In this document: one piece after another, positions 3,143 to 31,455 of the stretch
Layout of the letters: the number at the start of each line of letters is the position of its first letter
How positions within the stretch are numbered: the stretch's first letter is position 1
Assembly: GCF_002954775.1 (NCBI RefSeq)
Contig: NZ_PJME01000004.1
Span: 124,001-188,000 of the forward strand
Reading direction: 5' to 3'
DNA: 64,000 bases
From: Streptomyces geranii
GTDB lineage: Bacteria; Actinomycetota; Actinomycetes; Streptomycetales; Streptomycetaceae
The notes under the pieces: model-generated
The model's database searches: none
The model's input: only the letters and a program-made list of their open reading frames with translations
Told to the model about the DNA's origin: nothing
Program-made: the position numbers and the translations under genes

Positions 3143-3169
3143 TGTCACATCCGCGCCCCACGTCCGGTC
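3143..3169 (+). promoter_or_regulatory. ECF41-type promoter (site 1) for the P-type ATPase
   Basis: TGTCACA at 3143-3149, 16 bases, GGTC at 3166-3169, followed by ATAC. It lies 46 bases before the ATPase ATG. One of 14 such sites in the window. Confidence 0.8.
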
Positions 3170-3215
3170 ATACGGCTGGAAGCAGTGCACGACCCGGCCG
3201 ACCCGAGGAACGCAC

Positions 3216-6014
3216 ATGACGACGCTGGACGGGCGACCCGCGAGCGGGACCGTACGCGCGGACACCGACGCCGCCCCACAGGTCCCCGCCGGAGCGCCGG
3301 ACGCCCACCGGGAGACCGCCGCCCAGGTGGCCGATCGGCTCGGCGTCGTGCCAGGGGTAGGCCTGAGTACGGGTCAGGTCGGCGAGCGCACGGCGGCGGT
3401 CGGTACCAACCAGCTGTCCGAACCGGTCCGCCGCCCCGAGTGGCTGAAGTTCCTCGACCAGTTCCGCAACTGGCTCATCGTCGTCCTGCTGATCGCCGCC
3501 GTGGTCGCCGGAGCGGTCGGCGACCTCAGGGACGCGGTCGTGATCACCGTCGTCCTGCAGATCAACGCCGTGCTCGGCTACTGGCAGGAGCGCCGCGCCG
3601 AACGCAGCCTGGAGGCGCTGCGCCGGATGCTCGTGCCCACGGCCAGGGTCCGCCGCGACGGCACCGAACAGGTCGTGGAGGCCCGGCTCCTCGTACCCGG
3701 CGACGTGGTCCTGCTGGAGGCCGGCGACCGTGTCCCGGCCGACGGCCGGCTGACCGTCGCGGAATCGGTCGAGGCCGACGAGGCCGCCCTGACCGGCGAG
3801 TCCCAGCCGGTCGCCAAGAGCGTCAAGGCAGTCGAACCTACCTCGACCGCCCCGGTACCCCTCGCCGAGCGCACCAGCATGCTGTTCATGAACACCGCCC
3901 TGACCCGGGGCCGCGCCGAGCTGATCGTCACCGCCACCGGTATGCGCACCGAAGTCGGCGCCATAGCCGAGGCGTTGCGCACCGGGACGGAACCCCCGAG
4001 CCCGCTCCAGGTCCAACTCGACAGCCTGGGCAGCCGGTTGGCGCTGCTGAGCGGCGTCGCGGTCGTCGCCTACGCCCTGAGCGCCTGGATACGCGGCGAG
4101 CCCCTCTCCGACATCGCGTTGCAGGCGGTCGCCCTGGCCGTCGCCGCGATCCCCGAGGGCCTGCCCGCCGTACTGGCCCTCACCCTCGCCCTCGGTGTGC
4201 ACCGCATGGCCCAGCGCGGCGCCATCGTCAAACGGCTCGCGTCGGTGGAGTCGCTGGGCGCCGCCACCGTCGTATGCAGCGACAAGACCGGCACCCTCAC
4301 CCTCAACGAGATGACCGCCCGCACCCTGTGGACCGCCGGGAGGCTCTACGACGTCACGGGCGAGGGCTACGGGACGACAGGCGCCGTCCGCCGCCACGGA
4401 GCCCCCGACACCCCGCCCGCCGCCGACACGACTCCCGCCGACGACCTGCGTGCCGCCGTGCTGCCCTTCGCCCTCTGCAACGACGCACACCTGAACGGCG
4501 GTTACTACATCGGTGACCCGACCGAGGCCGCCCTGGTCGTCCTCGCGGCCAAGGCCGGCGTGGACGCCGACTGGACACGCGGCGAGCTGCCGCGCGTGGG
4601 CGAGCTGCCCTTCGACGGCGCCACCAAGTACATGGCCACCTTCCACACCGGGCCGGACGGACGTACGCGGGTCCAGGTGAAGGGCGCGGTCGACGTCCTT
4701 CTGGGCCTGTGCACCGACGTCCTCACCCAGGGCGGAACGCACGCCCTCGACGCGGCACACCGGGCCGAGATACTCGCCGTGACGGCCCGCTTCGGCGGCG
4801 CCGGGCTGCGGGTGCTGGGCGCGGCCACCGCCGAACTGAACGGCATGCCGGGCGAGTTCACCCCGGCCGCGCTGCCCGGGCTGACCCTGGTGTCGGTCGC
4901 CGGGATCGCCGACCCGCCCCGGCCACAGGCCCGGGACGCCATCGCGCTGTGCCGTACGGCGGGCGTGGCCGTGAAGATGATCACCGGGGACCACGCCGAC
5001 ACCGCCGCCGCCATCGCCCGCGAGCTGGACATCACCGGTGACGTCATGACCGGCGCCGAGCTGGAGCGGCTGACGGAGGCACAGCTCGCCGAACGCGTCG
5101 ACGGCACAGGGGTGTTCGCCCGGGTCGCCCCGGAGCACAAGGTCCTGATCGTCCGCGCGCTGACGGACCGGGGGCACATCGTCGCCATGACCGGGGACGG
5201 GGTCAACGACGCCGCCGCGCTCAAGGCCGCCCACATCGGCGTGGCCATGGGCGTCACCGGCACGGATGTCGCCAAGGAGGCCGCCGACATGGTCCTCACC
5301 GACGACGACTTCGCCACGATCGTGCGCGCCGTCCGCGAGGGACGGGCCATCTACGCCAACATCGTCAAGTTCGTCCGCTTCCAGCTCGCCACCAACATCG
5401 GCGCCATCCTGACCCTCCTCAGCGCCTCCCTCGCCGGACTGCCCACCCCGCTCACAGCGGCCCAACTCCTGTGGATCAACATCATCATGGACGGCCCGCC
5501 CGCCATGGCCCTCGCCGTCGACCCGGCCCGCGACGACGTGATGCGCCGTCCACCCCGCGACCCGCGCGAGCGCATCCTGGACGCCCGCAGACTCCTCGCC
5601 ATCGGCTGGGCCGGCGCCGTCATGGCCGCCGGGACGGTGACACTCTTCGCCGTCGCCCGCTCGTACGTCGCCGCCGACACCGCCCTGACCATGGCGTTCA
5701 CCACCTTCGTCCTGTTCCAGCTGTGCAACGCCCTCGGCGCCCGCACGGACGACGGCCCGGTCCTGGGCCGCTTCCAGCTCCACAACCGCGCGCTGTGGCT
5801 GTGTCTGGCCGGAGTTCTCGTCGTGCAGGTCGCCGTCGTCCAACTACCTTGGGCCGCAACGGTGTTCGGCACCGTGCCGCTGACCGTGGGCCAGTGGGCC
5901 CTGTGCCTGGGCACCGCCTCCACCGTGCTGCTCGCCGAGTACGCCCTGCGCGCCGTACGGCCGGCGCCCGCAACCACCGTTGTCACACCGTGGCGCGCTG
6001 ACCTGTCAAGGTGA
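3216..6014 (+). CDS. P-type cation-transporting ATPase (Ca2+-type, P2-like)
   Basis: A 932-residue P-type ATPase that would pump a cation across the cell membrane using ATP. All core motifs are present: an N-terminal cation-ATPase domain (about 31-85), TGES in the actuator domain (193-196), PEGLP in the transport helix (313-317), the phosphorylated aspartate in DKTGT (356-360), KGA in the nucleotide domain, MITGDHADTA, and GDGVND (660-665). The C terminus has the extra helix block typical of Ca2+/Mn2+ or Na+ pumps (INIIMDGPPAMALAVDP). PEGLP rather than CPC argues against a heavy-metal pump. The start at 3216 is chosen for GAGGA upstream and for its place downstream of promoter site 1. It is probably co-transcribed with the NADH dehydrogenase behind it. 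Confidence 0.93.
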   Translation: MTTLDGRPASGTVRADTDAAPQVPAGAPDAHRETAAQVADRLGVVPGVGLSTGQVGERTAAVGTNQLSEPVRRPEWLKFLDQFRNWLIVVLLIAAVVAGAVGDLRDAVVITVVLQINAVLGYWQERRAERSLEALRRMLVPTARVRRDGTEQVVEARLLVPGDVVLLEAGDRVPADGRLTVAESVEADEAALTGESQPVAKSVKAVEPTSTAPVPLAERTSMLFMNTALTRGRAELIVTATGMRTEVGAIAEALRTGTEPPSPLQVQLDSLGSRLALLSGVAVVAYALSAWIRGEPLSDIALQAVALAVAAIPEGLPAVLALTLALGVHRMAQRGAIVKRLASVESLGAATVVCSDKTGTLTLNEMTARTLWTAGRLYDVTGEGYGTTGAVRRHGAPDTPPAADTTPADDLRAAVLPFALCNDAHLNGGYYIGDPTEAALVVLAAKAGVDADWTRGELPRVGELPFDGATKYMATFHTGPDGRTRVQVKGAVDVLLGLCTDVLTQGGTHALDAAHRAEILAVTARFGGAGLRVLGAATAELNGMPGEFTPAALPGLTLVSVAGIADPPRPQARDAIALCRTAGVAVKMITGDHADTAAAIARELDITGDVMTGAELERLTEAQLAERVDGTGVFARVAPEHKVLIVRALTDRGHIVAMTGDGVNDAAALKAAHIGVAMGVTGTDVAKEAADMVLTDDDFATIVRAVREGRAIYANIVKFVRFQLATNIGAILTLLSASLAGLPTPLTAAQLLWINIIMDGPPAMALAVDPARDDVMRRPPRDPRERILDARRLLAIGWAGAVMAAGTVTLFAVARSYVAADTALTMAFTTFVLFQLCNALGARTDDGPVLGRFQLHNRALWLCLAGVLVVQVAVVQLPWAATVFGTVPLTVGQWALCLGTASTVLLAEYALRAVRPAPATTVVTPWRADLSR
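5981..6007 (+). promoter_or_regulatory. ECF41-type promoter (site 2) inside the ATPase 3' end
   Basis: TGTCACA at 5981-5987, 16 bases, TGTC at 6004-6007. The site lies within the last codons of the ATPase gene and 34 bases before the NADH dehydrogenase ATG, so it would give that gene its own start site. Confidence 0.7.
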
Positions 6015-6041
6015 CCGACGGACGAGAGAGCAGAGGGAACC

Positions 6042-7394: not shown

Positions 7395-7722
7395 GGAGGC
7401 CGCACGCGGCCTGACCGACATCGAGACGTTCCTCTACCGGGAAGCCCATCTGCACGCCGCCCACCAGCGGGTGGCGGACTTCGTCGGGCGCGAGCCCGGG
7501 CTGACCCCGGAGCAGCGGACCCACATCGAGCGCTGGTACCTCGACGAACAGACCTATGTGGCCCGCATGGTGACGGACCACATCGCCGACAGCATCGGCG
7601 CGGTGCACGCCCAGCACCGCGTCCGCCTCGGCCGCTGGCTGCGCGGCACGATGATCGCGATGGCCCTGATCACCACCGTACTGGTCGGGCTGTGCGTGGT
7701 CATCGTGCGATCGGTGAGCTGA
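7381..7722 (+). CDS. Small tail-anchored membrane protein
   Basis: A 113-residue protein that begins inside the end of the NADH dehydrogenase gene (14-base overlap) with GGAG six bases before ATG 7381. Residues 1-85 are soluble and helical, rich in charged residues and His. A single membrane helix (about 91-108, MIAMALITTVLVGLCVVIV) lies at the extreme C terminus. No family is recognised. The overlap implies translational coupling to the dehydrogenase, so it may anchor or regulate it; this is inference. Confidence 0.75.
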   Translation: MDAREEAARGLTDIETFLYREAHLHAAHQRVADFVGREPGLTPEQRTHIERWYLDEQTYVARMVTDHIADSIGAVHAQHRVRLGRWLRGTMIAMALITTVLVGLCVVIVRSVS

Positions 7723-8320: not shown

Positions 8321-8347
8321 TGTCACAGAAACGGCCTCCGCCCGGTC
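8321..8347 (+). promoter_or_regulatory. ECF41-type promoter (site 3) for the first sigma gene
   Basis: TGTCACA at 8321-8327, 16 bases, GGTC at 8344-8347, 40 bases before the ATG at 8388. Its position in front of an ECF41-like sigma gene suggests positive autoregulation. Confidence 0.82.
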
Positions 8348-8387: not shown

Positions 8388-9335
8388 ATGGATGCCGAAC
8401 CGTCCCCCATGACGAGTGACAGGGAAGAGGGTGACCTTGAGGACGCAGTCGCCGTCTTCGTGCGGCACCGCAGCCGGCTCTTCGGAATCGCCTACCGGGT
8501 GCTCGGCAGCGCGGTGGAGGCCGAGGACGTCGTCCAGGAGGTGTGGCTGCGCTGGCAGCGGACCGACCGGTCCGTGGTGCTCAGCCCGGTCGCCTTCCTC
8601 TCCAGCGCCACGACCCGGCTGGCCATCAACGTCGCCCAGTCGGCGCGGGTGCGCAGGGAGACGTACATCGGGCCGTGGCTGCCCGAACCCGTCGACACCA
8701 GCGCGGACCCGGAGCTGGGCGCACAGCGCGCCGAGGCCCTCGAACTGGCCCTGCTGCTGGTGCTGGAGAGACTGAGCCCCGCCGAACGCGCCGCGTACGT
8801 CCTGCGCGAGGCCTTCGACTACGCCTATCCGGAGATAGCCCAGATCCTCCAGCTCAGCCTCGTCAACGTACGGAAGATCGTGAGCCGGGCCCGCAAGCAC
8901 CTTTCGGAGGAGCAGCGGGGGAGCGTGGACACGGCGGAGCACCGGCGGCTGCTCAGTGTCTTCGTCGCGGCGGCCAGGACCGGGGACGTGGCGTCCCTGG
9001 AGGCCCTGCTCACCCCCGACACCGTCAGCCTGTCCGACGGCAACGGCATGCGGGGCTGTGCGCGCATCCCGGTGCTGGGCCGGGCGCGGGTGGCCAAGAT
9101 GGTGACGTATCCGAGGCTGTGGCGGGACGCGGAGCCCGCGCTGGTCCAGGCGAACGGCTCCACGGGCGTGCTGGTGCGGCGGGAGGGCCGGGCCATCGCG
9201 TTCATGACCATGGCGGCCTCGGAGGCGGGCATCCACCAGCTGATGTGGGTGTTCAGCCCGGACAAGATCGCCGCGTTCCTCGGTTCGCGCGCCCGCTTCG
9301 CGGCGCCCGGAATCGCCGGGGCGGGCGGTGTGTGA
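8388..9335 (+). CDS. ECF sigma factor, ECF41/SigJ type (sigma A of this cluster)
   Basis: A 315-residue extracytoplasmic-function sigma factor. Region 2 is at about 20-85 (HRSRLFGIAYRVLGSAVEAEDVVQEVWLRW) and region 4 at about 125-180 (LSPAERAAYVLREAFDYAYPEIAQIL). Between them is the linker motif WLPEP (97-101), which marks the ECF41 group. The last ~125 residues are a SnoaL-like extension that replaces an anti-sigma factor in this group. Its two signature motifs are altered: DGGG reads DGNG, and NPDKL reads SPDKI. The start at 8388 is supported by an upstream GGAG and by promoter site 3. It is tail to tail with the second sigma gene. Confidence 0.9.
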   Translation: MDAEPSPMTSDREEGDLEDAVAVFVRHRSRLFGIAYRVLGSAVEAEDVVQEVWLRWQRTDRSVVLSPVAFLSSATTRLAINVAQSARVRRETYIGPWLPEPVDTSADPELGAQRAEALELALLLVLERLSPAERAAYVLREAFDYAYPEIAQILQLSLVNVRKIVSRARKHLSEEQRGSVDTAEHRRLLSVFVAAARTGDVASLEALLTPDTVSLSDGNGMRGCARIPVLGRARVAKMVTYPRLWRDAEPALVQANGSTGVLVRREGRAIAFMTMAASEAGIHQLMWVFSPDKIAAFLGSRARFAAPGIAGAGGV

Positions 9336-9344: not shown

Positions 9345-10184
9345 TCAGGTGCCGGTCGGCCGGTTCCAGGAGCGGAGCTTGTCGGGGTTGAGGACGACCC
9401 AGACCTGGGCGACGTGCCGGCCGGCGATGTCGAGGCTGATGACGGCGGCGACCTGCCCGCCGTAGCGGACGACAAGGCCCGTACCGCCGTTGACGGCGTG
9501 CGTGGTCACCGTGGTGCGCGGGCGGTCGGCCAGGAGCGTCAGCAGACTCCGCGCGATCCGCCGGTTGCCGTGCACGGGCCTGGTCAGGGCCCGCACCTTG
9601 CCGCCGCCGTCGAAGAACGCGGTGGCGTCCGCGCACAGCAGTGACGCCAGCGACTCGGCGTCCCCGCCCGCGCAGGCCCGGCGTACGGCGCGGACGACGG
9701 CGTCCTGTTCGGCCGGTGTCGTGGGCCGGGAGCGCCGCAGCCGCAGACTGAGGCGGGCCCGGTCGGCCAGTTCGGCGCACTCCGGTTCCGTCCGCCCCAC
9801 GACGTCGGCGACCGCCTCCGGTGCCAGCCCGAAGACGTCGTTGAGCACGAACGCGGCCCGCTCGGCCGGGGACAGCAGGTTCAGCGCGTGCAGCAGCACC
9901 CGGCCGACCTCCTCCTCCAGCCGCGCCCCGGCGACCTCCGGCGTGCCCGCGCGCGGGAGGGCGAGCCGGCCCAGGCAGATCCCGCCCGCGGTCTTCGCGA
10001 GCCAGGACCGGGGCGCGGTGATGCGATGGCGCTCGGCGTCGGTCAGCGCGTACCACCGGCGGTAGGTCTCCTCGACGACCCGCTCCGCGCCGCCCGGACT
10101 GCCCAGCATCCAGTAGGCGACGTCCAGGAGATACCGCCGCTCGTCGAGCAGTTCCGCGATCGGCACCGCGTCGGCATGGTCCAT
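9345..10184 (-). CDS. SigJ-like sigma factor lacking the WLPEP linker (sigma B)
   Basis: A 279-residue protein with the same layout as the preceding sigma factor but with different losses. Region 2 is degenerate (LLDVAYWMLGSPGGAERVVEETYRRW, where AEDVVQE is expected). The WLPEP motif is absent, replaced by an Ala/Gly/Glu-rich linker. Region 4 (LSPAERAAFVLNDVFGLAPEAVADVV) is recognisable. The SnoaL-like extension is well kept, with FFDGGGK and the C-terminal NPDKL. ATG 10184 has AAGGG seven bases upstream. The degenerate region 2 raises the question of whether it still binds core polymerase and -10 DNA, or acts as a sensor or competitor; that is inference. Confidence 0.85.
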   Translation of the reverse strand: MDHADAVPIAELLDERRYLLDVAYWMLGSPGGAERVVEETYRRWYALTDAERHRITAPRSWLAKTAGGICLGRLALPRAGTPEVAGARLEEEVGRVLLHALNLLSPAERAAFVLNDVFGLAPEAVADVVGRTEPECAELADRARLSLRLRRSRPTTPAEQDAVVRAVRRACAGGDAESLASLLCADATAFFDGGGKVRALTRPVHGNRRIARSLLTLLADRPRTTVTTHAVNGGTGLVVRYGGQVAAVISLDIAGRHVAQVWVVLNPDKLRSWNRPTGT

Positions 10185-10228: not shown

Positions 10229-10255
10229 GACCGGACACCCGGGGACCTTGTGACA
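10229..10255 (-). promoter_or_regulatory. ECF41-type promoter (site 4) for sigma B
   Basis: On the minus strand TGTCACA (10249-10255), 16 bases, GGTC (10229-10232), 44 bases before the sigma B ATG. It is back to back with site 5, only 10 bp away. Confidence 0.8.
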
Positions 10256-10265: not shown

Positions 10266-10292
10266 TGTCACACCCGCGGCGCTTGCCCGGTC
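10266..10292 (+). promoter_or_regulatory. ECF41-type promoter (site 5) for whiB-like gene and qcrB
   Basis: TGTCACA at 10266-10272, 16 bases, GGTC at 10289-10292. The leader to the whiB-like ATG is 100 bases, the longest of the set. Confidence 0.8.
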
Positions 10293-10392: not shown

Positions 10393-10686
10393 ATGGCTGC
10401 TGACCGAGGCGACTATGCCGTGCGATGGCGCGAACGTGCGGCCTGTCTGCGCGTCGACGACCCCGATCTGTTCTTCCCCATCGGAACAAGCGGCCTGACG
10501 CTCACCCAGGTCGACGAGGCGAAAGCGGTCTGCCATCGCTGCCCCGTCGAGGAGCAGTGCCTCAACTGGGCCCTGTACGTGGGGCACGTGGAAGGAATCT
10601 GGGGCGGTACGACGGAGAGCGAACGCCGTGCGATGCGGCGCCGCGGACTGTGCCGGACCGGCGAAACGGTCACCTCGGCGGCGTGA
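10393..10686 (+). CDS. WhiB-like iron-sulfur transcriptional regulator
   Basis: A 97-residue Wbl protein, an actinobacterial family that binds a [4Fe-4S] cluster and the principal sigma factor. The four cysteines are present as C18, C47, C50 and C56 (the latter three as CHRCPVEEQC). The turn GIWGG follows, then a basic C-terminal stretch (ERRAMRRRG) for DNA contact. GGAGG lies upstream of the ATG. It sits downstream of promoter site 5 and 75 bases before qcrB, probably in one transcript. Wbl clusters sense O2, NO or redox state, which suits the neighbouring respiratory and NO-defence genes. Confidence 0.93.
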   Translation: MAADRGDYAVRWRERAACLRVDDPDLFFPIGTSGLTLTQVDEAKAVCHRCPVEEQCLNWALYVGHVEGIWGGTTESERRAMRRRGLCRTGETVTSAA

Positions 10687-10761
10687 CGGGCCGGCCGTGT
10701 TCCTTCTTCTCCTCGTGCCCTTCACGGGCTCTTTCGGCGATTCATGAATGGTGGCAGAGGC

Positions 10762-12411
10762 ATGGCTGACGGGATTCCGGAAAACGACGTACGGCCGGCG
10801 GCCAAGGGCGAAAAGGTCGCCGAATGGTTCGGCGGACGCCTCGGTGTTCCCGGCTCGGTCCGGGCGAAAGCGCGGAAGGCGTTCCCGGACCACTGGTCGT
10901 TCCTGCTGGGCGAGATATGCCTCTACAGTTTCGTCGTCATCGTCGTGACCGGCGTCTATCTGACGCTGTACTTCCACCCCTCCATGGCACAGGTCGAGTA
11001 CCAGGGCAGTTACGAGCCGCTCCGGGGACAGTTGGTGTCGGAGGCGTTCGACTCGACGATGCACATCTCCTTCGACGTCCGGGGCGGACTGCTGATCCGG
11101 CAGGCCCACCACTGGGCGGCGCTCGTGTTCGTCGCCGCGATGCTCGCGCACATGATGCGGGTGTTCTTCACCGGCGCCTTCCGCAAGCCCCGCGAACTCA
11201 ACTGGACGTTCGGTTTCCTGCTGCTGGTCCTCGGCATGTTCGGCGGCCTGACGGGCTACGACCTCCCGGACGACCTGCTGTCCGGCACGGGACTCGCCGT
11301 CGTGAACGGCACCATCCTGTCGATCCCGATCGTCGGCACCTACCTGTCGATGTTCCTCTTCGGCGGCGAGTTCCCCGGCGAGGACCTGGTGGCCCGCTTC
11401 AACACGATCCACGTACTGATCATCCCGGCGCTGATGGTGGGGCTCCTGATCGCCCATCTGATCCTGGTCCTGCTGCACCGGCACACGCGCTACCCGGGTC
11501 CGGGACGGAACAACAGGAACGCCGTGGGCCTGCCGCCGAAGGTAAAGGCCCTGAAATCCGCGGGGTTCTTCTTCCTGGTCTCCGGTGTCGTCTTCGTGAT
11601 GGCGGCCCTCGCACAGATCAACCCCGTCTGGCTGTACGGCCCTTACCGCCCCGACCAGGTCTCGGCCGGGTCGCAGCCCGACTGGTACATGGGCGTGGCG
11701 GACGGGCTGCTGCGGGTCATGCCGGGCTGGGAGGTCACCCTCGGGGGCCACACCCTGGCCCTGGACAACCTGATCCCGCTGCTGGCGGGCGTCGGTTTCT
11801 TCCTCGCCCTGGGCGCCTACCCGTTCATCGAGGCCTGGGTGACCGGCGACGACCGCGACCAGCACCTTCTCGACCGGCCGCGCAACCGGCCGGTGCGGAC
11901 GGCACTCGGGGTCGCGTGGCTCAGCTTCTACCTGGTGGCGCTGATCGGCGCCGCGAACGACATCATCGCCCTCCGCCTCCATGTCTCCGTCAACGCGGTG
12001 ACCTGGGCGGTCCGTATCGGCCTGTTCGTCGTGCCGGTCGCGGCCTTCGTGGTGGCGAAGAGGTTCGCCCTCGGCCTGCAGCGCCGGGACCGGGACAAGG
12101 TGCTGCACGGCCGCGAGACCGGCATCGTCAAACGGCTGCCGCACGGCGAGTTCGTCGAGGTGCACGAGCCGCTCGGCCGGGAACAGCTCCACGCCCTCAC
12201 CCGGCACGAGCAGTACGAGCCGATCGGCCCGGGTCCCTCCGCGAACGGTCCCTCCGCGAACGGCGACGGCCCGAAGGCCGGAGCGCGGTTCGCCCGGCGG
12301 CTGCGCGTCAGGCTCAGCCGCGGCCTCTACGGCGAGGGCACGCAGATCGCCAAGCCGACCGCCCAGGAGTACCGGGAGTACCAGGAGATCACCGGCGAAC
12401 ACCGGGGCTGA
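10762..12411 (+). CDS. qcrB: Cytochrome b subunit of the bc complex (orphan QcrB)
   Basis: A 549-residue cytochrome b of actinobacterial type, a membrane protein that oxidises quinol at the bc1 complex. It has eight or more hydrophobic helices. The haem-ligand histidines fit RQAHHWAALVFVAAMLAH (first pair) and IHVLIIPALMVGLLIAH (second pair). The Qo-site PEWY motif appears as PDWY (QPDWYMG). The C-terminal cytoplasmic extension ends in a basic, Tyr-rich tail and contains a 15-bp tandem repeat encoding GPSAN twice. In most streptomycetes qcrB lies in qcrCAB; here there is no qcrA or qcrC, so this is probably a second copy. ATG 10744 is an alternative start; 10762 has a better-spaced GGTGG. Confidence 0.9.
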   Translation: MADGIPENDVRPAAKGEKVAEWFGGRLGVPGSVRAKARKAFPDHWSFLLGEICLYSFVVIVVTGVYLTLYFHPSMAQVEYQGSYEPLRGQLVSEAFDSTMHISFDVRGGLLIRQAHHWAALVFVAAMLAHMMRVFFTGAFRKPRELNWTFGFLLLVLGMFGGLTGYDLPDDLLSGTGLAVVNGTILSIPIVGTYLSMFLFGGEFPGEDLVARFNTIHVLIIPALMVGLLIAHLILVLLHRHTRYPGPGRNNRNAVGLPPKVKALKSAGFFFLVSGVVFVMAALAQINPVWLYGPYRPDQVSAGSQPDWYMGVADGLLRVMPGWEVTLGGHTLALDNLIPLLAGVGFFLALGAYPFIEAWVTGDDRDQHLLDRPRNRPVRTALGVAWLSFYLVALIGAANDIIALRLHVSVNAVTWAVRIGLFVVPVAAFVVAKRFALGLQRRDRDKVLHGRETGIVKRLPHGEFVEVHEPLGREQLHALTRHEQYEPIGPGPSANGPSANGDGPKAGARFARRLRVRLSRGLYGEGTQIAKPTAQEYREYQEITGEHRG

Positions 12412-12432: not shown

Positions 12433-13122
12433 TCAGTACCCGCCGGCCGTGTCCGACGCGGCCTCGGCGAGGACCCGCTCCAGGTCGGTGAGGTCACCGG
12501 TCCCGGCCGCCGCGAGGAAGGTCTCGACGAGCCGCCGGTGCGCGACCGAGTCCACGGGCTGTCGGCGGTGGCCGGAGACGAGCCGCTGCTGGGCGCGGAC
12601 GACCTGCTGCCGCGCGTTGGCGGCGCTCAGCCCCAGCACCTCGGAGATCCGCCCGTACGGACAGCCGAACCCCTCGCGCAGGACATAGGCCGCGCGCTGC
12701 CTGGGCGTCAGTGTCTCCATCAGCAGGAGCACAGCCCGCTCGACGGCGTCCCGCCGCTCGGCCACCGCCTCCGGGGTCACCCGGTCGTCCAGCAGGTCCG
12801 GGAGCCACGGGCTGGCGCAGGACTCCCGGCGCCGCCAGGCGGACTGGACGACGTTCAGGGCCAGCCGGACGGTCGTCGTCCTGAGCAGCGCCGACGGGTT
12901 CAGGACGAGCGCGCGGTCCGTGCGCTGCCAGCGCAGCCACGCCTCCTGGAGGACGTCCTCGGCGTCGTTCGCGTCGCCGAGGATCCGGTTGGCGATCCGG
13001 AACAGCCCGGGTCTGGCGCGCACGAACACCGACGTCGCGGTTTCCAGGTCACCGAGGACCGGGCCGGCCGTCGTAGCGGCTGCCTCGCGGCCCTGCCCGA
13101 CTGAGGGCGCATACGTGTCCAC
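12433..13122 (-). CDS. ECF41-like sigma factor with truncated C-terminal extension (sigma C)
   Basis: A 229-residue sigma factor. Region 2 is intact (RPGLFRIANRILGDANDAEDVLQEAWLRW). The linker reads WLPDL instead of WLPEP. Region 4 is intact (LTPRQRAAYVLREGFGCPYGRISEVLGLS). The protein stops about 25 residues into the SnoaL-like domain (HRRLVETFLAAAGTGDLTDLERVL, then a short end), so DGGG and NPDKL are missing. In ECF41 proteins this extension regulates activity, so a short form might be constitutively active; that is inference from the family. GTG 13122 has GAGGAG six bases upstream. No TGTCACA box precedes it, unlike the other two sigma genes. It is tail to tail with qcrB. Confidence 0.88.
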   Translation of the reverse strand: MDTYAPSVGQGREAAATTAGPVLGDLETATSVFVRARPGLFRIANRILGDANDAEDVLQEAWLRWQRTDRALVLNPSALLRTTTVRLALNVVQSAWRRRESCASPWLPDLLDDRVTPEAVAERRDAVERAVLLLMETLTPRQRAAYVLREGFGCPYGRISEVLGLSAANARQQVVRAQQRLVSGHRRQPVDSVAHRRLVETFLAAAGTGDLTDLERVLAEAASDTAGGY

Positions 13123-13271: not shown

Positions 13272-13298
13272 TGTCACACCTTCGGTACGTGCCCTGTC
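13272..13298 (+). promoter_or_regulatory. ECF41-type promoter (site 6) for the HSL-type hydrolase
   Basis: TGTCACA at 13272-13278, 16 bases, TGTC at 13295-13298, then ATAC. It is 45 bases before the ATG at 13344. Confidence 0.78.
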
Positions 13299-14305: not shown

Positions 14306-14332
14306 TGTCACAGGTCGGACGGGAGTCCGGTC
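14306..14332 (+). promoter_or_regulatory. ECF41-type promoter (site 7) for the patatin operon
   Basis: TGTCACA at 14306-14312, 16 bases, GGTC at 14329-14332, then CTAC. It starts 12 bases after the hydrolase stop and 71 bases before the patatin start. Confidence 0.8.
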
Positions 14333-22088: not shown

Positions 22089-22115
22089 GACAGGACAGTG
22101 GCCGCGCTTGTGACA
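22089..22115 (-). promoter_or_regulatory. ECF41-type promoter (site 8) for the first SDR
   Basis: Minus strand: TGTCACA (22109-22115), 16 bases, TGTC (22089-22092), 56 bases before the ATG at 22032. Confidence 0.78.
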
Positions 22116-23910: not shown

Positions 23911-23937
23911 GACCAGTCCGTCCGGGGATCTGTGACA
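23911..23937 (-). promoter_or_regulatory. ECF41-type promoter (site 9) for the SdhA-like gene
   Basis: Minus strand: TGTCACA (23931-23937), 16 bases, GGTC (23911-23914), then GTAC, 35 bases before GTG 23875. Confidence 0.8.
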
Positions 23938-25234: not shown

Positions 25235-25261
25235 GACCGCGCAGCGCCCCGCCGTGTGACA
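25235..25261 (-). promoter_or_regulatory. ECF41-type promoter (site 10) for the FAD/NAD oxidoreductase
   Basis: Minus strand: TGTCACA (25255-25261), 16 bases, GGTC (25235-25238), 39 bases before GTG 25195. It lies only 10 bp from the edge of the MITE. Confidence 0.8.
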
Positions 25262-25271: not shown

Positions 25272-25469
25272 CTAGGTCCTGTCGTCAAATTCCCGCCTGC
25301 TCCGCGGCGTCCGGCACGCTCCCCCAGAGGGGGGACCCCCACTCGCCGCACCGGGCACAAGCCCACGTACCACCAGTACGAGGGCTTGCACCCGGCACGC
25401 CGAGAGCACGCACCGGACGCCGCGGAGCCGCCCTACGGGCGACGACGGGAATTTGACGACAGGACCTAG
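25272..25469. mobile_element. Palindromic MITE-like element with CTAG ends
   Basis: A ~198-bp non-coding element. Its ends are perfect 22-bp inverted repeats (25274-25295 and 25446-25467, starting AGGTCCTGTCGTC), each abutting CTAG. Inside are further matching arms, e.g. 25299-25314 with 25413-25428 (16 bp perfect), and a small central GTAC...GTAC loop, so the whole element can fold into one long hairpin. It has no transposase frame, so it would depend on an IS elsewhere in the genome. The right end overlaps the Ohr stop codon. Confidence 0.75.
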
Positions 25470-25963
25470 GGAGCCAACGTGATCGTCGTCGGCGTACCCT
25501 GCCAGGCCATTTTCGCGTACGGGCACAGCGAGTCCGCCCTCTCCAGGAGCGGGGCGGCGACCTCGGGATCGACGCCGGGCCACTGGACCACCAGGTCGAT
25601 GCGCAGCAGATAGCCGCCGTCCGCCGGGTCCCGCCCGAAGGCGACCGTCGCCCGCACGGAGATCTCGGTGGGGTCGAGCGGCACCTGCCGGGCCACCAGG
25701 CTCAGCGCCCCGTGGTAGCAGGCGGCGAAACCGGCGGCGAACAGTTGCTCGGGGTTGGTGCCCTGGCCGTCGCCGCCCAGTTCGGCGGGCATCCGCAGAT
25801 GGAGATCCAGGGCTCCGTCGGCCGAGCGGGCCCGGCCCGACGCCCGCCCGTGGCTCGCCGTGCCGCCGCTCACCGTCACCGTCGTGGTGTAGATGGGGGC
25901 GAAGGACTCGCCGCCGAAGTCCATCTCGGTGGACAGCTCGGGCAGCGGACTCTGCTCGGTCAC
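25466..25963 (-). CDS. Ohr/OsmC-family organic hydroperoxide resistance protein
   Basis: A 165-residue thiol peroxidase-like protein of the OsmC/Ohr family, which reduces organic peroxides in the cytoplasm. The two redox cysteines are Cys82 (GFAACYHGAL) and Cys147 (DSLCPYAKM). The N-terminal strand motif is TTTVTVSGGTASHGRASG. GTG 25963 is used because a longer frame would start inside promoter site 11. The stop codon TAG is formed by the CTAG at the end of the MITE, so the last residues (TITLAP) may differ from the original end. It is transcribed alone. Confidence 0.88.
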   Translation of the reverse strand: MTEQSPLPELSTEMDFGGESFAPIYTTTVTVSGGTASHGRASGRARSADGALDLHLRMPAELGGDGQGTNPEQLFAAGFAACYHGALSLVARQVPLDPTEISVRATVAFGRDPADGGYLLRIDLVVQWPGVDPEVAAPLLERADSLCPYAKMAWQGTPTTITLAP

Positions 25964-26006: not shown

Positions 26007-26033
26007 GACCGGCGAGTCCCCTCCCGTGTGACA
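26007..26033 (-). promoter_or_regulatory. ECF41-type promoter (site 11) for the Ohr gene
   Basis: Minus strand: TGTCACA (26027-26033), 16 bases, GGTC (26007-26010), 43 bases before GTG 25963. Confidence 0.8.
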
Positions 26034-26041: not shown

Positions 26042-26824
26042 TCACCCCCGTACGAGCCGCACCGCCAGCACGGCCGGATCGGTCCGCCCCGGCAGCGGCG
26101 CGAAGCCGGCCGACGCCAGTTCCCCGATCACCCTCCCGCGAGCGGCGGGCCACATCCAGAACGTCTCGTGGTGCTCCCGCAGCACCCCGCCCTCGCCCCG
26201 CACCCAGTAGTCGAAGCGGGTCCGGATCCGGTCCCCGTCGGCCGACGCCACGACCCGCCCGCCGTACTCGTGCCGTCCGATCCACTGGGCGGGCAGGTCG
26301 TGCGTGGTCTCGCGGTACGGGAGCCGCGCGGGCGGCAGTTGGACGAGCAGCACGCCTCCGGGTACGAGGGCTCCGGCGACGGCCGGCCACAGGGCACGCC
26401 GTGACTCCGGGTGGAGGCAGGCGACCGTGTTGTGGCACACGGCGACATCGGCGACCCCGCCCAGTCCGGCCCCGTGCGGCCCGGCCTCGTCGAGCCGGTG
26501 CGGGTGCACGGTGACCCGCGCCCGCAGACCGGCGGGCAGCGCCGCGAGCCGGGTCATCAGCGGGGAGCGCATGGCCCGGCTGGGCTCCACGGCGTGCACG
26601 GGGACCCGCGACTCCACCAGGCTCATCAGCGTGACCCGCCCGGTGCCCGCGCCGACGTCCAGCACACCGAGCCGGGCCCTCCGCACCGCGGCGCCGTACC
26701 ACCGGCGCACGCGCGCGGCGTCGGAGTCCGCTTGCAGGACGTCGTAGAACTCGGCACTGACCGCGTAGGCGTCCAACTCCTCCGCGTGCGCCGGGGAAGG
26801 GCGCATGTCCAGCACGGCGTTCAC
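26042..26824 (-). CDS. Class I SAM-dependent methyltransferase
   Basis: A 260-residue methyltransferase with motif [14 protein letters not shown] (about 54-66), the acidic residue of motif II in VHAVEPS, and motif IV region [13 protein letters not shown]-terminal [10 protein letters not shown] fits small-molecule methyltransferases that begin with a SAEFYD-type segment. GTG 26824 overlaps the aceE stop as GTGA, so the two are translationally coupled. The substrate is unknown. Its link to AceE is unusual. Confidence 0.87.
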
Positions 26825-29472
26825 CCCCGCCGGTCCTGGCCGTCGCGCGCCCGCACCACCGACTCCGGGTCGACCGCGCCGGCCCGCGCCAGCCGGTCCA
26901 GGGCGGCTGTGACGATCGAATCGGCGTCCACGTGGAAGTAACGGCGTACGGCGTCACGGGTGTCCGACAGGCCGAAGCCGTCCGTGCCCAGCGACGAGTA
27001 GTCCTGCTCGACCCACTGGCTGATCTGGTCGGGCACCTGCCGCATCCAGTCGCTGACCGCCAGCACGGGCCCCGGGGCACCGGAGAGCGCGGCCGTCACA
27101 TACGGGACGCGCTCCTCGCCCCGCAGCCGCGCCCGGTCGGCGCACAGGGCGTCGCGGCGCAGCTCCGTCCAGGACGTCACCGACCAGACGTCGGCGTGCA
27201 CTCCCCACCGGGCCAGGAGGAGTTCCTGCGCCTTGAGGGCCCAGTGGATGGCCGTACCGGAGGCCAGCAGCTGGACGCGTGGTCCGACGTCGTACGGTTC
27301 GGCCGGCCGGAAGCGGTAGATGCCCCGGAGGATGCCCTCCTCGACCGACGGTCCGGCCGGCATCGGCGGCTGCCGCTCGGGCTCGTTGTAGACGGTCAGG
27401 TAGTAGAAGACGTCCTCGGGCCGGTCGCCGTACATCCGGCGCAGCCCCTCGCGGACGATCACGGCGATCTCGTACGCGAAGGCCGGGTCGTAGCTCACGG
27501 CCGCCGGATTGGTGGAGGCCAGCAGATGGGAGTGGCCGTCGGCGTGCTGGAGGCCCTCGCCGGTCATCGTCGTACGGCCCGCCGTCGCGCCGATGACGAA
27601 GCCGCGCCCCAGCTGGTCGGCGAGGGCCCAGAACTGGTCGCCCGTGCGCTGGAAGCCGAACATGGCGTAGAAGATGTAGAAGGGGATCATGGGTTCGCCG
27701 TGGGTGGCGTACGAGGTCGCGGCGGCCGTGAACTCGGCCATGGAACCGGCCTCGGTGATGCCCTCGTCGATGAGCTGGCCGTCCGTGGCCTCGCGGTAGT
27801 GCAGCAGTTGGTCGACGTCGACCGGTTCGTAGGTCTGGCCCTTCGGCGAGTAGATCCCGGCCGTCGGGAAGAGGGACTCCATGCCGAAGGTCCGTGCCTC
27901 GTCGGGGATGATCGGCACCCAGCGCGGGCCCGTCCCCTCGACCCGCATCAGGTCCTTGACCAGCCGGACCAGCGCCATGGTGGTGGCCACCTCCTGATTG
28001 CCGAAGCCCTTGACGAGGGCTTCGAAGGGGGCGGCGGGCGGCTGGGGGAGTGGCTTGGCCGTCACGCGCCGGACCGGTACGGGACCGGCCAGCGCCGTGC
28101 GCCGCTCGTGGAGGTAGCGCACCTCGTCCGAGTCCTCGCCCGGGTGCCAGTACGGGACCAGGTCGCCGGTCAACGCGCTGTCGGGGATAGGGAGTTCGAG
28201 GGTGTCGCGCAGCTCGCGGAACTGGGCCGCCGTCAGCTTCTTCATCTGGTGGTTGGCGTTGCGGGACTCGAACGCCGAGCCCAGCGTGTGGCCCTTCACC
28301 GTCTGGGCGAGGACGACGGTCGGCTGCCCCTCGTGCTCGACGGCGGCCCGGTACGCGGCGTGCACCTTGAGGGGTTCGTGGCCGCCCCGGGAGCCGGCGA
28401 ACAGGTCGGTGAGCTGGATGTCGCTCAGGCCCGCGGCCAGGTGGGACAGTTCGTCGCCGACGAAGAAGTGCTTGCGGATGTAGGCGGCGTCCCGTGCGGC
28501 GTACGTCTGGAGCTGGGCGTCGGGGGTCTCGCCGAGCCGCCGGACGAGGGAGCCGTCCGTGTCCTGCCGCAGCACCGGGTCCCAGGCCGCGCCCCAGAGG
28601 GCCTTCACGACCTGCCAGCCCGCACCCCGGAACCGGGCCTCCAGCTCCTGCACGATCTTGGAGTTGGACCGCACCGGACCGTCCAGCCGCTGGAGGTTGC
28701 AGTTGACGACGAAGGTGAGGTTGTCGAGGCCCTCGCGGGCGGCCAGTTCCAGCGCGGCCGTCGACTCGGGCTCGTCCACCTCGCCGTCGCCCAGGAAGGC
28801 CCACACCCGGGAGCCGGACGTGTCCTTGATGCCCCGGTTGAGCAGATAGCGGTTGAACCTGGCCTGGTAGACGGCGGCGAGCGGGCCGAGCCCCATCGAC
28901 ACGGTCGGGAACTCCCACAGCCACGGCAGCCGCCGGGGATGCGGATACGAGGGCAGCCCGTGACCGTCCGCCTCCCGCCGGAAACCGTCCAGTTGCGCCG
29001 CGCTCAGCCGCCCCTCCAGGAACACCCGGGCGTAGATGCCGGGCGAGGCGTGTCCCTGGAGATACAGCTGGTCCCCGGAACCGTCGCCGTCCTTGCCCTT
29101 GAAGAAGTGGTTGAACCCGACCTCGTAGAGCCAGGCCGCCGAGGCGTACGTCGCGATGTGGCCGCCCAGGCCGAGGCGCGAACCGCGGGTCACCATCGCG
29201 GCGGCGTTCCACCGGTTCAGCGCGGTGATCCGGGACTCCATGGCGAGATCGCCGGGGTAGTCCGGCTGGGACGCCGCCGGGATCGTGTTGATGTAGTCCG
29301 AGGAGAGCAGGCCCGGCAGGGCGAGCCCGGACCTGGCCGCGTACTCGTGGACGCGCCGCAGCAGGTACACCGCGCGTTCGGGGCCCGTGTGCCGGATGAC
29401 CGCGTCGAGCGACGCCTGCCATTCGGCGGTCTCCTCCGCGTCACGGTCGGGGAGTTGGTCGAGTTCGCTCAT
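26821..29472 (-). CDS. aceE: Pyruvate dehydrogenase E1 component (homodimeric)
   Basis: An 883-residue AceE that decarboxylates pyruvate using thiamine diphosphate and passes the acetyl group to the E2 lipoyl domain. The ThDP motif runs from [10 protein letters not shown] to [17 protein letters not shown]. Other family signatures are YINTIP near the N terminus, the [16 protein letters not shown] segment and [11 protein letters not shown]. Length and motif order match the full-length homodimeric enzyme of actinobacteria. The GGGG-rich site precedes ATG 29472, seven bases after the SDR stop. No E2 or E3 gene is near. It is likely a second aceE driven by site 12. Confidence 0.95.
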
Positions 29473-29479
29473 GACCCGC

Positions 29480-30241
29480 TCACCCCTGGGCGTGGACGAC
29501 GGGCCGCGCGAGCCACTCGGCGAACGTCACGTGCCCGACGCGGGCGTCGCAGCCGGGCACCAGGGTCCGCTCCCGCAACTCGGCCCCGCAATAACGGGCT
29601 TGAGCGTCCGGGACGACAACTCGGCTGTCGCCGCGGGCGGTCAGCACCTCGCCCGCCAGCTCGTCGAGCTGCCGCACCTCGGGACCGGCGACCTCGACCA
29701 CACCGAACTGCGGGAGATCCACGGCGACATGGGCGACGGCGACAGCGACGTCCTCCGTCGACACGGGAGCGGCGAGCACCGGAGCGACGTGCACACGGTC
29801 GTACACGGTGTTCTTCTCGACCATCGCCGCGACGGACTCGAAGAACGGCGTCGCCCGCACGATCGAGTGCGGGACGGGCGAACTGCGCACCATGTCCTCC
29901 TGGAGCAGCTTCGCCCGGAAGTAGTCCGACCACAGCCGGTCGGCTCCCACGGCGGAGAGGACCACATGGTGCTCCACCCCGGCCGCGACCGCCGCCGCCA
30001 ACAGGTTGGTCGTGGCGGCACGGAAGAACTGCAGCCCTCTGGCCCCCTGGATCCGGTCGGGCGCGTCCGTGACGTCCACCAGCACCCCGGCCCCGCGCAG
30101 CGCCTCGTCGAGCCCGTCCCCGGTGAGGACGTCGACACCGTGCCGACGGGACACGGGCACGACCTCCACACCGTGGTCCCGGAGCCGCGCGACCGTCCTG
30201 GAGCCGATCCGCCCGGTGGCTCCCGCGACAACTACCTTCAT
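29480..30241 (-). CDS. NmrA-like SDR oxidoreductase (second copy)
   Basis: A 253-residue paralogue of the SDR at 21286-22032, with GATGRIG at 8-14 and parallel segments ([42 protein letters not shown]). ATG 30241 has AAAGGGG about six bases upstream; an earlier in-frame start would lie inside promoter site 12. It is first in the SDR-aceE-methyltransferase operon. The two SDRs keep the same end-to-end layout, which points to duplication within the cluster. Confidence 0.88.
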
Positions 30242-30281
30242 CTGGATCCCCTTTCCCTGCTCGATCTCTCCTGTTCCATAC

Positions 30282-30308
30282 GACAGACCACGCACCACTG
30301 TTGTGACA
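30282..30308 (-). promoter_or_regulatory. ECF41-type promoter (site 12) for SDR-aceE-methyltransferase
   Basis: Minus strand: TGTCACA (30302-30308), 16 bases, TGTC (30282-30285), then GTAT, 40 bases before the ATG at 30241. It is back to back with site 13, 17 bp away. Confidence 0.78.
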
Positions 30309-30325
30309 CCGACGGGCGCCGGGAC

Positions 30326-30352
30326 TGTCACAGGAGCGGGGAGTGTCCGGTC
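30326..30352 (+). promoter_or_regulatory. ECF41-type promoter (site 13) for the cupin gene
   Basis: TGTCACA at 30326-30332, 16 bases, GGTC at 30349-30352, 57 bases before GTG 30410. Confidence 0.8.
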
Positions 30353-30409
30353 TCCTCATCGAGAAAGCGTGCGGGAGATCCGGACGCAAGAGCCCACGGA
30401 GGTGCGACA

Positions 30410-30817
30410 GTGTCGACCGACGAGACCTGGATGACCGCGGCGAGAGTGCTGCAGGACGTGACGCCGCCCCATATCCCCGAAGGCGCCTCGGGGATGACCC
30501 TGCTGGTCGAGTGGCCGCCCGGCGCCACGGGCAGCCCGCCGCACCGCCACTCGGGACCGGCCTTCGGATACGTCGTCGAGGGCGCCGTCCGCTTCGAGCT
30601 GGAGGGCGAACCGGAGCGGGTGGTCAAGGCCGGGGAGACCTTCTGGGAACCGGGCGGCGACGTCATCCACTACCAGGACGGCAACGCGCTGACGGACGCA
30701 CCCACCCGCTTCGTGGTGACCATGCTGTGCGCACCGGGCCACCCGATGCTCACGTTCGTCGACGACACGGAACTCGCCGCGCGGGCCCAGCTCCGGGCAC
30801 CACGTCCTGCCGGGTGA
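30410..30817 (+). CDS. Cupin-domain protein
   Basis: A 135-residue single-domain cupin. Motif 1 reads PPHRHSGPAFGYVVEGAVRFELEGE and motif 2 WEPGGDVIHYQDGN, giving His, His, Glu and His as likely metal ligands. GTG 30410 has GGAGG seven bases upstream. The frame is open further upstream but would run through the promoter. Such proteins may be dioxygenases, isomerases or small-molecule sensors; nothing here decides which. Transcribed alone from site 13. Confidence 0.87.
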   Translation: MSTDETWMTAARVLQDVTPPHIPEGASGMTLLVEWPPGATGSPPHRHSGPAFGYVVEGAVRFELEGEPERVVKAGETFWEPGGDVIHYQDGNALTDAPTRFVVTMLCAPGHPMLTFVDDTELAARAQLRAPRPAG

Positions 30818-30822
30818 CGCGG

Positions 30823-30870
30823 ACGGTCCGCCTCCCCGCCGTGGGTCGGGGCGGCGGGGAGACGGACCGT
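30823..30870. terminator. Bidirectional hairpin between cupin and AhpD-like genes
   Basis: An 18-bp stem with one mismatch (30823-30840 with 30853-30870) and a 12-base loop, between convergent stop codons. It can serve both transcripts. Confidence 0.85.
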
Positions 30871-30896
30871 GCGGGCCTGACCGGGGAAGGGCCGGC

Positions 30897-31370
30897 TCAG
30901 CCGAACTGGCCTGGCTGGTAGTCCCCGGCAGGCTGCTGGTTGATGACGTTGACGCGGTTGTACGCGTTGATGACGGCGACGAGGGAGATCAGCGCGACGA
31001 GCTGCTCCTCGTCGAAGTGCTTGGCGGCGTTCGCCCAGACCTCGTCGCTGACGCCCCCGGCCGCGTCGGCGACACGGGTGCCCTGCTCCGCCAGTTCCAG
31101 CGCGGCGCGCTCGGCCTCGGTGAAGACCTTGGCCTCGCGCCAGGCGGCGACCAGGTGGAGGCGCTGCTGGGTCTCGCCCGCCTGGGCGGCGTCCTTGGTG
31201 TGCATGTCGGTGCAGAAGCCGCAGCCGTTGATCTGGCTCGCGCGGATCTTCACCAGCTCCTGCACCGTGGAGGGCAGCGCCGAGTCCGCGACCAGCTTGG
31301 CGGCCGAGTTGATGTGCTTCAGCACCTTTCCCGCGAGCGGGTGGCCGAAGTAGTTGAGACGCGATTCCAC
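30897..31370 (-). CDS. AhpD-like carboxymuconolactone decarboxylase-family protein
   Basis: A 157-residue alkylhydroperoxidase of the AhpD/CMD family. The redox motif is Cys50-Gly-Phe-Cys53 with His57 (NGCGFCTDMHTKDAAQ), the exact CxxC-x3-H pattern. GTG 31370 has GAGGAG upstream; a longer frame starts just before the promoter -10 region. Reduction of peroxides with a thiol partner is the likely role. CMD proteins are the best-known genomic partners and targets of ECF41 sigma factors, and this copy has its own ECF41-type promoter. Confidence 0.92.
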   Translation of the reverse strand: MESRLNYFGHPLAGKVLKHINSAAKLVADSALPSTVQELVKIRASQINGCGFCTDMHTKDAAQAGETQQRLHLVAAWREAKVFTEAERAALELAEQGTRVADAAGGVSDEVWANAAKHFDEEQLVALISLVAVINAYNRVNVINQQPAGDYQPGQFG

Positions 31371-31428
31371 GTTGATCTCCTCGCCGTGTTGTTCACCGTT
31401 GTCCACCGTGTTGCGGATACACACTGTT

Positions 31429-31455
31429 GACCGGGTGGCCGGGCCGGTTGTGACA
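31429..31455 (-). promoter_or_regulatory. ECF41-type promoter (site 14) for the AhpD-like gene
   Basis: Minus strand: TGTCACA (31449-31455), 16 bases, GGTC (31429-31432), 58 bases before GTG 31370. Confidence 0.82.

What the first reader, a model, noticed from the sequence alone, without database searches (positions are those of the whole stretch)
3143..31455. Fourteen ECF41-type promoters form one contiguous regulon across 28 kb
Reading both strands gives 14 sites TGTCACA-N16-[G/T]GTC at 3143, 5981, 8321, 10229(-), 10266, 13272, 14306, 22089(-), 23911(-), 25235(-), 26007(-), 30282(-), 30326 and 31429(-). All 14 keep exactly 16 bases between the boxes, and all point at a gene start 34-100 bases away. 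ECF41 sigma factors are known to use TGTCACA-N16-CGTC, but usually for themselves and one adjacent gene. Here the -10 is GGTC (11 sites) or TGTC (3 sites), and the targets include at least 18 genes. None was found in the remaining 32 kb. An island-scale ECF41 regulon of this size would be new to me.
Basis: partly seen in the sequence, partly recalled or inferred. Interest (0 to 1): 0.95.

Follow-up and report, generated by a model that had tools for sequence, protein, structure and literature searches.

The report
Self-contained sigma-factor island with split sigmas
A 28-kb block of a Streptomyces genome carries 14 copies of one exact promoter-like signal in front of likely about 20 genes, together with three related sigma-factor-like genes (one whole, one without its sensor part, one with an altered polymerase-binding part), so the block is likely switched on as a unit by its own sigma factors, whereas this sigma family has mostly been described as serving a single target.

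Summary
In detail: all 14 sites TGTCACA-N16-KGTC are there (0.06 expected by shuffling), every TGTCACA in the window is one of them, and 14 of the genome's 19 matches lie in this 28 kb. One count is off: GGTC 10 and TGTC 4, not 11 and 3. The regulon reading is strongly supported by sequence, not by experiment. Similar clusters recur in Streptomyces: 45 of 392 genomes hold 10 or more sites; 30 of 35 genomes with the island's intact sigma do, 15 of 357 without. Around related sigmas, spacing 16 gives 237 matches against 1-4 at nearly all other spacings. An unselected base of the -10 is a pyrimidine in 340 of 341 sites. Beyond the finding, all six islands compared carry three ECF41-like types: A intact; B without the region-2 glutamine and WLPE linker but with sensor motifs; C a sigma core ending before those motifs, never with its own site (0 of 10). 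C resembles an engineered truncation reported as hyperactive; B may be a trans-acting brake. The ECF41 papers of which I read parts report single targets.

The parts
3143..3169 (+). ECF41-type site 1; P-type cation ATPase gene 3216-6014
5981..6007 (+). site 2 (TGTC); FAD pyridine-nucleotide oxidoreductase 6042-7394, then small ORF 7381-7722
8321..8347 (+). site 3; sigma A
8388..9335 (+). sigma A: ECF41-like sigma factor with sigma2, WLPEP linker, sigma4 and C-terminal extension
9345..10184 (-). paralogue B: region-2 glutamine and WLPEP linker absent, sensor motifs DGGGK and NPDKL present; likely not a working sigma factor
10229..10255 (-). site 4; paralogue B; back to back with site 5
10266..10292 (+). 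site 5; WhiB 10393-10686 then qcrB
10393..10686 (+). WhiB-family transcription factor
   Evidence: PF02467, 3.7e-24
10744..12411 (+). second copy of cytochrome bc1 cytochrome b (QcrB); the other copy is 64% identical
12433..13122 (-). paralogue C: sigma2-linker-sigma4 core, ends before the DGGG/NPDKL sensor motifs; no site of its own
13272..13298 (+). site 6 (TGTC); alpha/beta hydrolase 13344-14294
14306..14332 (+). site 7; patatin-like phospholipase 14404-15384, then a glycosyltransferase frame (domains from about 15390 to 16490)
18212..20983 (+). large LuxR-type ATPase regulator, no site; relatives in 5 of 6 islands compared
22089..22115 (-). site 8 (TGTC); NmrA-like oxidoreductase 21286-22032
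23911..23937 (-). site 9; succinate-dehydrogenase-like flavoprotein 22145-23875
25235..25261 (-). site 10; ferredoxin-reductase-like protein 23972-25195
26007..26033 (-). site 11; OsmC-like protein 25466-25963
26042..26824 (-). methyltransferase, apparent operon with aceE
   Evidence: operon by gene order only
26821..29472 (-). third genomic copy of pyruvate dehydrogenase E1 (aceE); other copies 73% and 61% identical
29480..30241 (-). NmrA-like oxidoreductase, first gene behind site 12
30282..30308 (-). site 12 (TGTC); NmrA-like gene, aceE, methyltransferase; back to back with site 13
30326..30352 (+). site 13; cupin 30410-30817
31429..31455 (-). site 14; carboxymuconolactone decarboxylase-like protein 30897-31406

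Best explanation
This is a 28-kb Streptomyces gene island in which 14 sites of one exact pattern (TGTCACA-N16-KGTC) stand directly before gene starts and are predicted to be promoters read by the ECF41-type sigma factors that the island itself encodes. Shown by sequence: the sites, their concentration and placement, the recurrence of such clusters with the same sigma lineage, and three paralogues of complementary build. Inferred: sigma A would be the gated switch, becoming active when its C-terminal extension senses a small molecule and then amplifying itself through its own site. Paralogue C, which lacks the sensor motifs and has no site, would be an ungated driver made from another promoter, and so a second input. 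Paralogue B, which keeps the sensor motifs but lacks the region-2 glutamine and the linker that NPDKL is thought to contact, would be a brake made under the same kind of promoter, holding A or C in trans. The output is a set of spare parts for aerobic redox metabolism (a second qcrB, a third aceE, a succinate-dehydrogenase-like flavoprotein, reductases, OsmC- and carboxymuconolactone-decarboxylase-type proteins) with hydrolases, likely used when a redox-active or respiratory poison is met.
For: Sites. Placement. Recurrence: 45 of 392 genus genomes with 10 or more sites, reversed control at most 5 (my tally of the table); main clusters of 20 sites in 52 kb (of 28 in G020), 28 in 72 kb (of 42, G165), 22 in 63 kb (of 28, G196), 22 in 74 kb (of 26, G142). 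Sigma link: 30 of 35 genomes with A at 68% identity or more have 10 or more sites, 15 of 357 without. Spacing: 237 matches at N16 against 1-4 at N10, N12-15 and N17-21, in 44 loci around sigmas of 67% identity or more. Unselected -10 base: pyrimidine in 340 of 341 distinct sites. Paralogues: A, 76 rows, Q 76, WLPE/D 74; B, 49 rows, Q 0, WLPE/D 0, NPxK 47, DGGG 41; C, 10 rows, Q 10, NPxK 0, DGGG 0, own site 0. A, B and C types occur in all 6 islands compared; pairwise Ka/Ks 0.14-0.41 in 8 pairs. PMC3426412 (passages): cutting Ecf41 at residue 204 or 206 raised activity about 20- and 120-fold. PMC7730460 (passages): NPDKL is linked to the YVGPWLPEP linker motif in ECF41.
Against: No transcript start, binding or expression data. 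Five of 35 genomes with A have only 3-8 sites (G022, G069, G087, G321, G384) and 15 genomes without A have 10 or more; 11 of the 44 loci with sigmas of 67% identity or more hold two or fewer sites within the stretch fetched. Clusters are not always the whole story: in G394 the two main ones hold 13 and 12 of 51 sites, and the ten places listed for G325 are spread. The genomes are not independent. The own genome has 13 ECF41-like genes. A scores just under NCBIfam's cut-offs (317.7 of 323.25 for TIGR02957; 253.4 of 271 for SigJ) and Pfam reports no SnoaL domain in it. The tree has SH-aLRT values only; the C set has 90, and B is not shown to be one clade. Only 5 of 10 C proteins keep PWLP[E/D], so a lock through that linker cannot apply to the other five. 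PMC3426412 reports that removing the whole extension abolished activity, so C must end at the right place; the match to residue 204 is made through SigJ and profiles, not the Ecf41 sequence. PMC7730460 (passages) also mentions the view that the compact state may be the promoter-recognising one, which would speak against NPDKL as a lock.
Confidence: 0.72

Rival explanations
1. The sites are ECF41-type promoters, but they are read mainly by other ECF41 paralogues of the genome; the island sigmas are only members of a shared, cross-talking regulon.
Against: Of ten ECF41-like loci of the own genome outside the island (L150, L151, L153-L160, about 1.5 kb of flank each) one carries TGTCACA with spacing 15-17, and it has CGTC; a further match near the C27 gene lies just beyond the stretch fetched. 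Site number follows the A-type sigma strongly.
Confidence: 0.2
2. B and C are decaying duplicates of A without function; the island is a plain single-sigma regulon.
For: Both lack parts of a canonical ECF41 sigma; some relatives hold short or broken-looking copies (L056, L057, L066).
Against: Ten C proteins end at about the same place and group together; B keeps 30 invariant columns over the 40 sequences aligned, of 54 listed, and its sensor motifs; Ka/Ks 0.24-0.41 for the B and C pairs; B has its own site in 29 of 49 rows.
Confidence: 0.2
3. The sites are operators of a DNA-binding regulator (for example the LuxR-type protein of the island), not promoters.
For: A LuxR-type regulator gene lies in 5 of 6 islands compared.
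Against: The motif is directional, has one exact spacing and a -10-like second box, and lies 22-100 bases before starts; TGTCACA is the published ECF41 -35.
Confidence: 0.04
4. Chance or composition.
For: None beyond the high G+C content.
Against: 0.06 expected against 14; no N16 excess outside the island; N16 excess around related sigmas.
Confidence: 0.01

Closest known systems
ECF41 sigma factors of B. licheniformis and R. sphaeroides (Wecke et al. 2012, PMC3426412; passages and section 25 read)
   Same: TGTCACA -35, spacing 16 +/- 1, WLPEP linker, C-terminal extension; a carboxymuconolactone decarboxylase among the targets
   [quoted passage not shown] here 14 sites before likely about 20 genes, -10 KGTC rather than the consensus CGTC, and paralogues B and C
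S. meliloti RpoE9 (ECF41; PMC6180224, passages read)
   Same: ECF41 group, -35/-10 matching the group's motif
   Different: A single target identified, SMb20029 (putative carboxymuconolactone decarboxylase)
M. tuberculosis SigJ (structure 5xe7)
   Same: Best solved relative of A, B and C by sequence and of the B model by fold (overall TM only 0.33)
   Different: A single protein with core and extension together; I read nothing on its regulon
Azospirillum brasilense RpoE10 (ECF41; seen as a mention and a cited title in PMC8999054; its own paper not held)
   Same: ECF41 group
   Different: The cited title says that it controls motility and lateral flagella, so wider ECF41 effects are on record; I could not see its promoters
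S. tsukubaensis SigG1-RsfG (ECF56; PMC7730460, passages read)
   Different: Has a separate antagonist RsfG, lacks the NPDKL motif, at least four targets reported, no autoregulation seen

Membership tests
ECF41 sigma factors (protein A) | sigma2 and sigma4 with WLPEP linker | tested here: met
   Pfam regions 2 and 4; W 75 of 76 and WLPE/D 74 of 76 in A rows
ECF41 sigma factors (protein A) | C-terminal SnoaL/NTF2-like extension with DGGG- and NPDKL-type motifs | tested here: inconclusive
   Near full-length profile match (2-279 of 281, TIGR02957) but 317.7 bits against a cut-off of 323.25; variant motifs DGNG and SPDKI; no Pfam SnoaL match
ECF41 sigma factors (protein A) | Promoter TGTCACA, spacing 16 +/- 1, then a GTC-type -10 | tested here: met
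   the letter before GTC is G or T, not the consensus C
Single-target ECF41 system as described in 2012 | One target gene or operon | tested here: not met
   14 sites before separate units; a prediction, not expression data
ECF41 sigma factors (protein B) | Working sigma2 and WLPEP linker | tested here: not met
   Region-2 Q 0 of 49, WLPE/D 0 of 49; no Pfam region 2 match in the window's B. Loss of function is inferred from sequence
ECF41 sigma factors (protein B) | Sensor motifs of the extension | tested here: met
   DGGG 41 of 49, NPxK 47 of 49; C-terminal NTF2-like part of the model mostly confident
ECF41 sigma factors (protein C) | C-terminal extension with DGGG and NPDKL | tested here: not met
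   0 of 10 for both; the proteins end before them
Anti-sigma factor (protein B) | Binds and inhibits a sigma factor | not testable with these tools
   Inferred from build only

The most novel reading that the evidence does not exclude
The island runs on a sigma factor that has been split into its halves: a tailless, always-active sigma (C) and a headless sensor (B) of the same ECF41 stock that works as a trans-acting lock, an anti-sigma factor made out of a sigma factor, beside an intact gated copy (A); together they command a set of spare aerobic enzymes that recurs, patchily, across Streptomyces.
Probability: 0.3. Interest if true: 0.88.

Novelty: new variant of a known kind. Interest (0 to 1): 0.74.

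Why it matters
The experimental ECF41 reports of which I read parts give one target each, and the function and signal of the group are largely open. A region with 14 sites (28 in one relative's main cluster) would make an ECF41 sigma a regional master switch and would let its unknown signal be sought through a strong, many-gene readout. Naturally split paralogues would be a ready-made test of how the fused extension controls an ECF sigma: nature appears to have repeated a truncation that made Ecf41 hyperactive in the laboratory, and to have kept a sensor form apart.

Tried and rejected
Considered and dropped: chance or composition; a -10 peculiar to this island (distant relatives also have K); a second spacing of 11 (41 matches), which I read as the upstream half of an extended -10 of the form TGTCCGGTC; reading the long ORFs 29469-30389(-) and 30343-30921(+) as genes (no Pfam match; the frames 29480-30241(-) and 30410-30817(+) have matches); a general plasmid origin (4 of 72,556 plasmid records hold a relative at E 1e-60 or better; one, at 75% identity on a 2.35-Mb linear plasmid, has 6 N16 sites in the 41 kb fetched); the promoter of C (a conserved block lies upstream of C1 genes but no recognisable promoter).

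Rows dropped or limited: one search kept the best 80 of 571 related stretches. In one search, 35 of 222 sigma ORFs (under 190 aa) were left out, 164 rows were chosen (18 of the low-identity ones) and 155 used. The C-like row L074_14371m (28% identity) is left out of the motif counts. Motif counts leave out the loci under 67% identity. In one search, 16 of 444 sites had no downstream ORF by my rule; the 444 include duplicates (parts of L058 and G394 agree). One search scored five candidates a genome at E 1e-105 or better. The alignment folded held 40 of the 54 B sequences listed.
Full report
1. The observation. All 14 sites are present at the stated positions with exactly 16 bases between the boxes; 0.06 are expected by dinucleotide shuffling. 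The window has 14 copies of TGTCACA and each is a site. In the assembly (10.2 Mb) there are 19 matches, 14 of them here, and none for the reversed pattern. With the letter before GTC left free and spacings 13 to 19 allowed, the matches outside the island number 12, 13, 5, 8, 3, 5 and 7, so spacing 16 is not favoured elsewhere. The -10 split is 10 GGTC and 4 TGTC, not 11 and 3. Each site has a start codon of a gene-like frame 22-100 bases beyond the -10.

2. The genes. Behind the 14 sites lie: a P-type cation ATPase, an FAD oxidoreductase, sigma A, paralogue B, WhiB with qcrB, an alpha/beta hydrolase, a patatin-like enzyme followed by a glycosyltransferase frame, an NmrA-like protein, a succinate-dehydrogenase-like flavoprotein, a ferredoxin-reductase-like protein, OsmC, an NmrA-like protein with aceE and a methyltransferase, a cupin, and a carboxymuconolactone decarboxylase-like protein. 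PMC3426412 calls the usual ECF41 targets COEs (section 25); that the letters stand for carboxymuconolactone decarboxylases, oxidoreductases and epimerases is recalled. If so, all three classes are gathered here. qcrB is a second copy (the other 64% identical) and aceE a third (73% and 61%).

3. Recurrence. Of 392 genomes of the genus, 45 hold 10 or more sites (up to 51), while the reversed control reaches at most 5 (my tally; it reaches 6 in one genome of another genus). Where the places were listed in full, main clusters hold 20 of 28 sites (52 kb, G020), 28 of 42 (72 kb, G165), 22 of 28 (63 kb, G196) and 22 of 26 (74 kb, G142), but in G394 only 13 and 12 of 51, and the ten places listed for G325 are spread. 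Of 35 genomes with an A-type sigma at 68% identity or more, 30 have 10 or more sites; of the other 357, 15 do (Fisher p 1e-28, not corrected for kinship). The best 80 of 571 related stretches in named genomes were fetched (S. fulvoviolaceus is nearest at 85%). The 44 of them with sigmas of 67% identity or more hold 237 sites at spacing 16 and 1-4 at spacings 10, 12-15 and 17-21; the 41 at spacing 11 I put down to the extended -10. Eleven of the 44 hold two or fewer sites; of the 36 others five hold six or more. The base just before K was not part of the search, yet it is C or T in 340 of 341 distinct sites.

4. Gene families in the six islands compared (window, G020, G165, G196, G142, G394). 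With a site: flavoprotein 8 of 8, carboxymuconolactone decarboxylase 5 of 5, a 151-residue family taken to be the cupin 5 of 6, qcrB 4 of 5 (in the window it lies behind WhiB), FAD oxidoreductase 4 of 5, NmrA-like 12 of 15, B 9 of 12. Without: the LuxR-type regulator 0 of 9, aceE 0 of 5 (in the window it lies behind another gene), hydrolase families 2 of 5, 1 of 9 and 0 of 5. The islands are thus not made of targets alone.

5. Three paralogues. In a tree of sigma2-sigma4 (155 rows, SH-aLRT only), C is one set of 10 rows (support 90; the excluded L074 row falls apart), A holds two sets supported at 99 (51 rows, and 24 rows of which 23 are A), and B rows lie in several sets in the unresolved base, so B is not shown to be one clade. 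Motif counts: A, 76 rows: region-2 Q 76, WLPE/D 74, sensor P 70 and K 70. B, 49 rows: Q 0, WLPE/D 0, DGGG 41, NPxK 47. C, 10 rows: Q 10, DGGG 0, NPxK 0, PWLP[E/D] 5. Own site: A 33 of 76, B 29 of 49, C 0 of 10. That this glutamine contacts core RNA polymerase is recalled. All six islands carry the three types; in G020 and G165 the copy nearest A is short and a full-length copy of the sister A set is present, and one of two C genes of G165 is cut on its start side by the end of the fetched stretch. Ka/Ks in eight pairs is 0.14-0.41, which argues against decay. The model of B (40 sequences) has confident sigma2 helices and a mostly confident C-terminal part, with a weak sigma4 part (mean pLDDT 75.7); its best fold matches are SigJ and SigG1, at low overall TM, then ketosteroid-isomerase-like proteins. 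In G020, G142, G165 and G196 a C gene of the second C subset lies about 190-290 bases downstream of a large LuxR-type regulator gene on the same strand, which suggests, but does not show, how C could be controlled.

6. Mechanism. PMC3426412 (passages) reports that cutting Ecf41 within the extension raised activity about 20-fold (B. licheniformis, residue 204) and 120-fold (R. sphaeroides, residue 206), while removing the whole extension abolished it. C keeps the first part of the extension and ends before the DGGG motif; aligned through SigJ, P0003 residue 217 is SigJ 199. I infer that C resembles the hyperactive form. PMC7730460 (passages) describes a link between NPDKL and the YVGPWLPEP linker motif. 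B has the first and lacks the second; C of the window's type (5 of 5) has the second and lacks the first. I infer that B may lock C or A in trans. This is untested; it cannot hold through that linker for the five C proteins without PWLP[E/D], and the same paper mentions the view that the compact form may be the one that recognises promoters.

7. What is known. Section 25 of PMC3426412 (read) concludes that ECF41 proteins generally control one target gene or operon; PMC6180224 (passages) reports a single target for RpoE9; PMC8999054 (passages) cites a paper by whose title an ECF41 sigma controls motility and lateral flagella in Azospirillum. Passages only were seen of PMC8103513, PMC9205884 and PMC11256431. 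In searches of a library of open-licence papers, the titles and abstract starts listed show no report of an ECF41 island or of split ECF41 paralogues; subscription papers, among them the 2019 ECF41/ECF42 study, are not held, so absence from print is not shown.

8. Verdict. The site cluster is real and the regulon very probable; the split-sigma control is a bold but testable reading. The physiological role (spare redox and respiratory enzymes) is inference from gene families.

Noticed in passing
window 31490-33241 (-): Globin domain joined to FAD and NAD binding domains (flavohaemoglobin-like, with a long N-terminal part), just beyond the last site and without a site.
   Followed up: no
window 33302-39386 (-): Alginate lyase, a pectate-lyase-like protein and a large BTAD/NB-ARC/TPR regulator follow the island.
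   Followed up: no
upstream of C1 genes: window 13122-13270, L049, L050, L052, L132: A conserved block (around CACGACCACG and ACGG) lies roughly 90-140 bases before C1 genes, without an ECF41 box on that strand; possibly an operator.
   Followed up: partly
L132 19447(-), L131 12843(+), L137 4689(-), L142 19142(+): In these four islands a C gene of the second subset lies directly downstream of a large LuxR-type ATPase regulator gene.
   Followed up: partly
G000:C3:214364-214939 (L158): A further ECF41-like match, about 26 kb beyond the window end, near the base of the A/C part of the tree.
   Followed up: no
L019 (G000:C27): A site-like match before an FAD-oxidoreductase-like frame near an ordinary ECF41-like gene (C27:36723-37571): looks like a classical single-target pair, with TGTC.
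   Followed up: partly
   Followed up: no
many genomes, e.g. G165:C2:6284363: One non-island match, TGTCACAAGGGAGGCGCACACGGTGTC, recurs nearly unchanged in several genomes of the genus; it has a purine at the -10 position that is otherwise a pyrimidine, so probably an unrelated conserved sequence.
   Followed up: no
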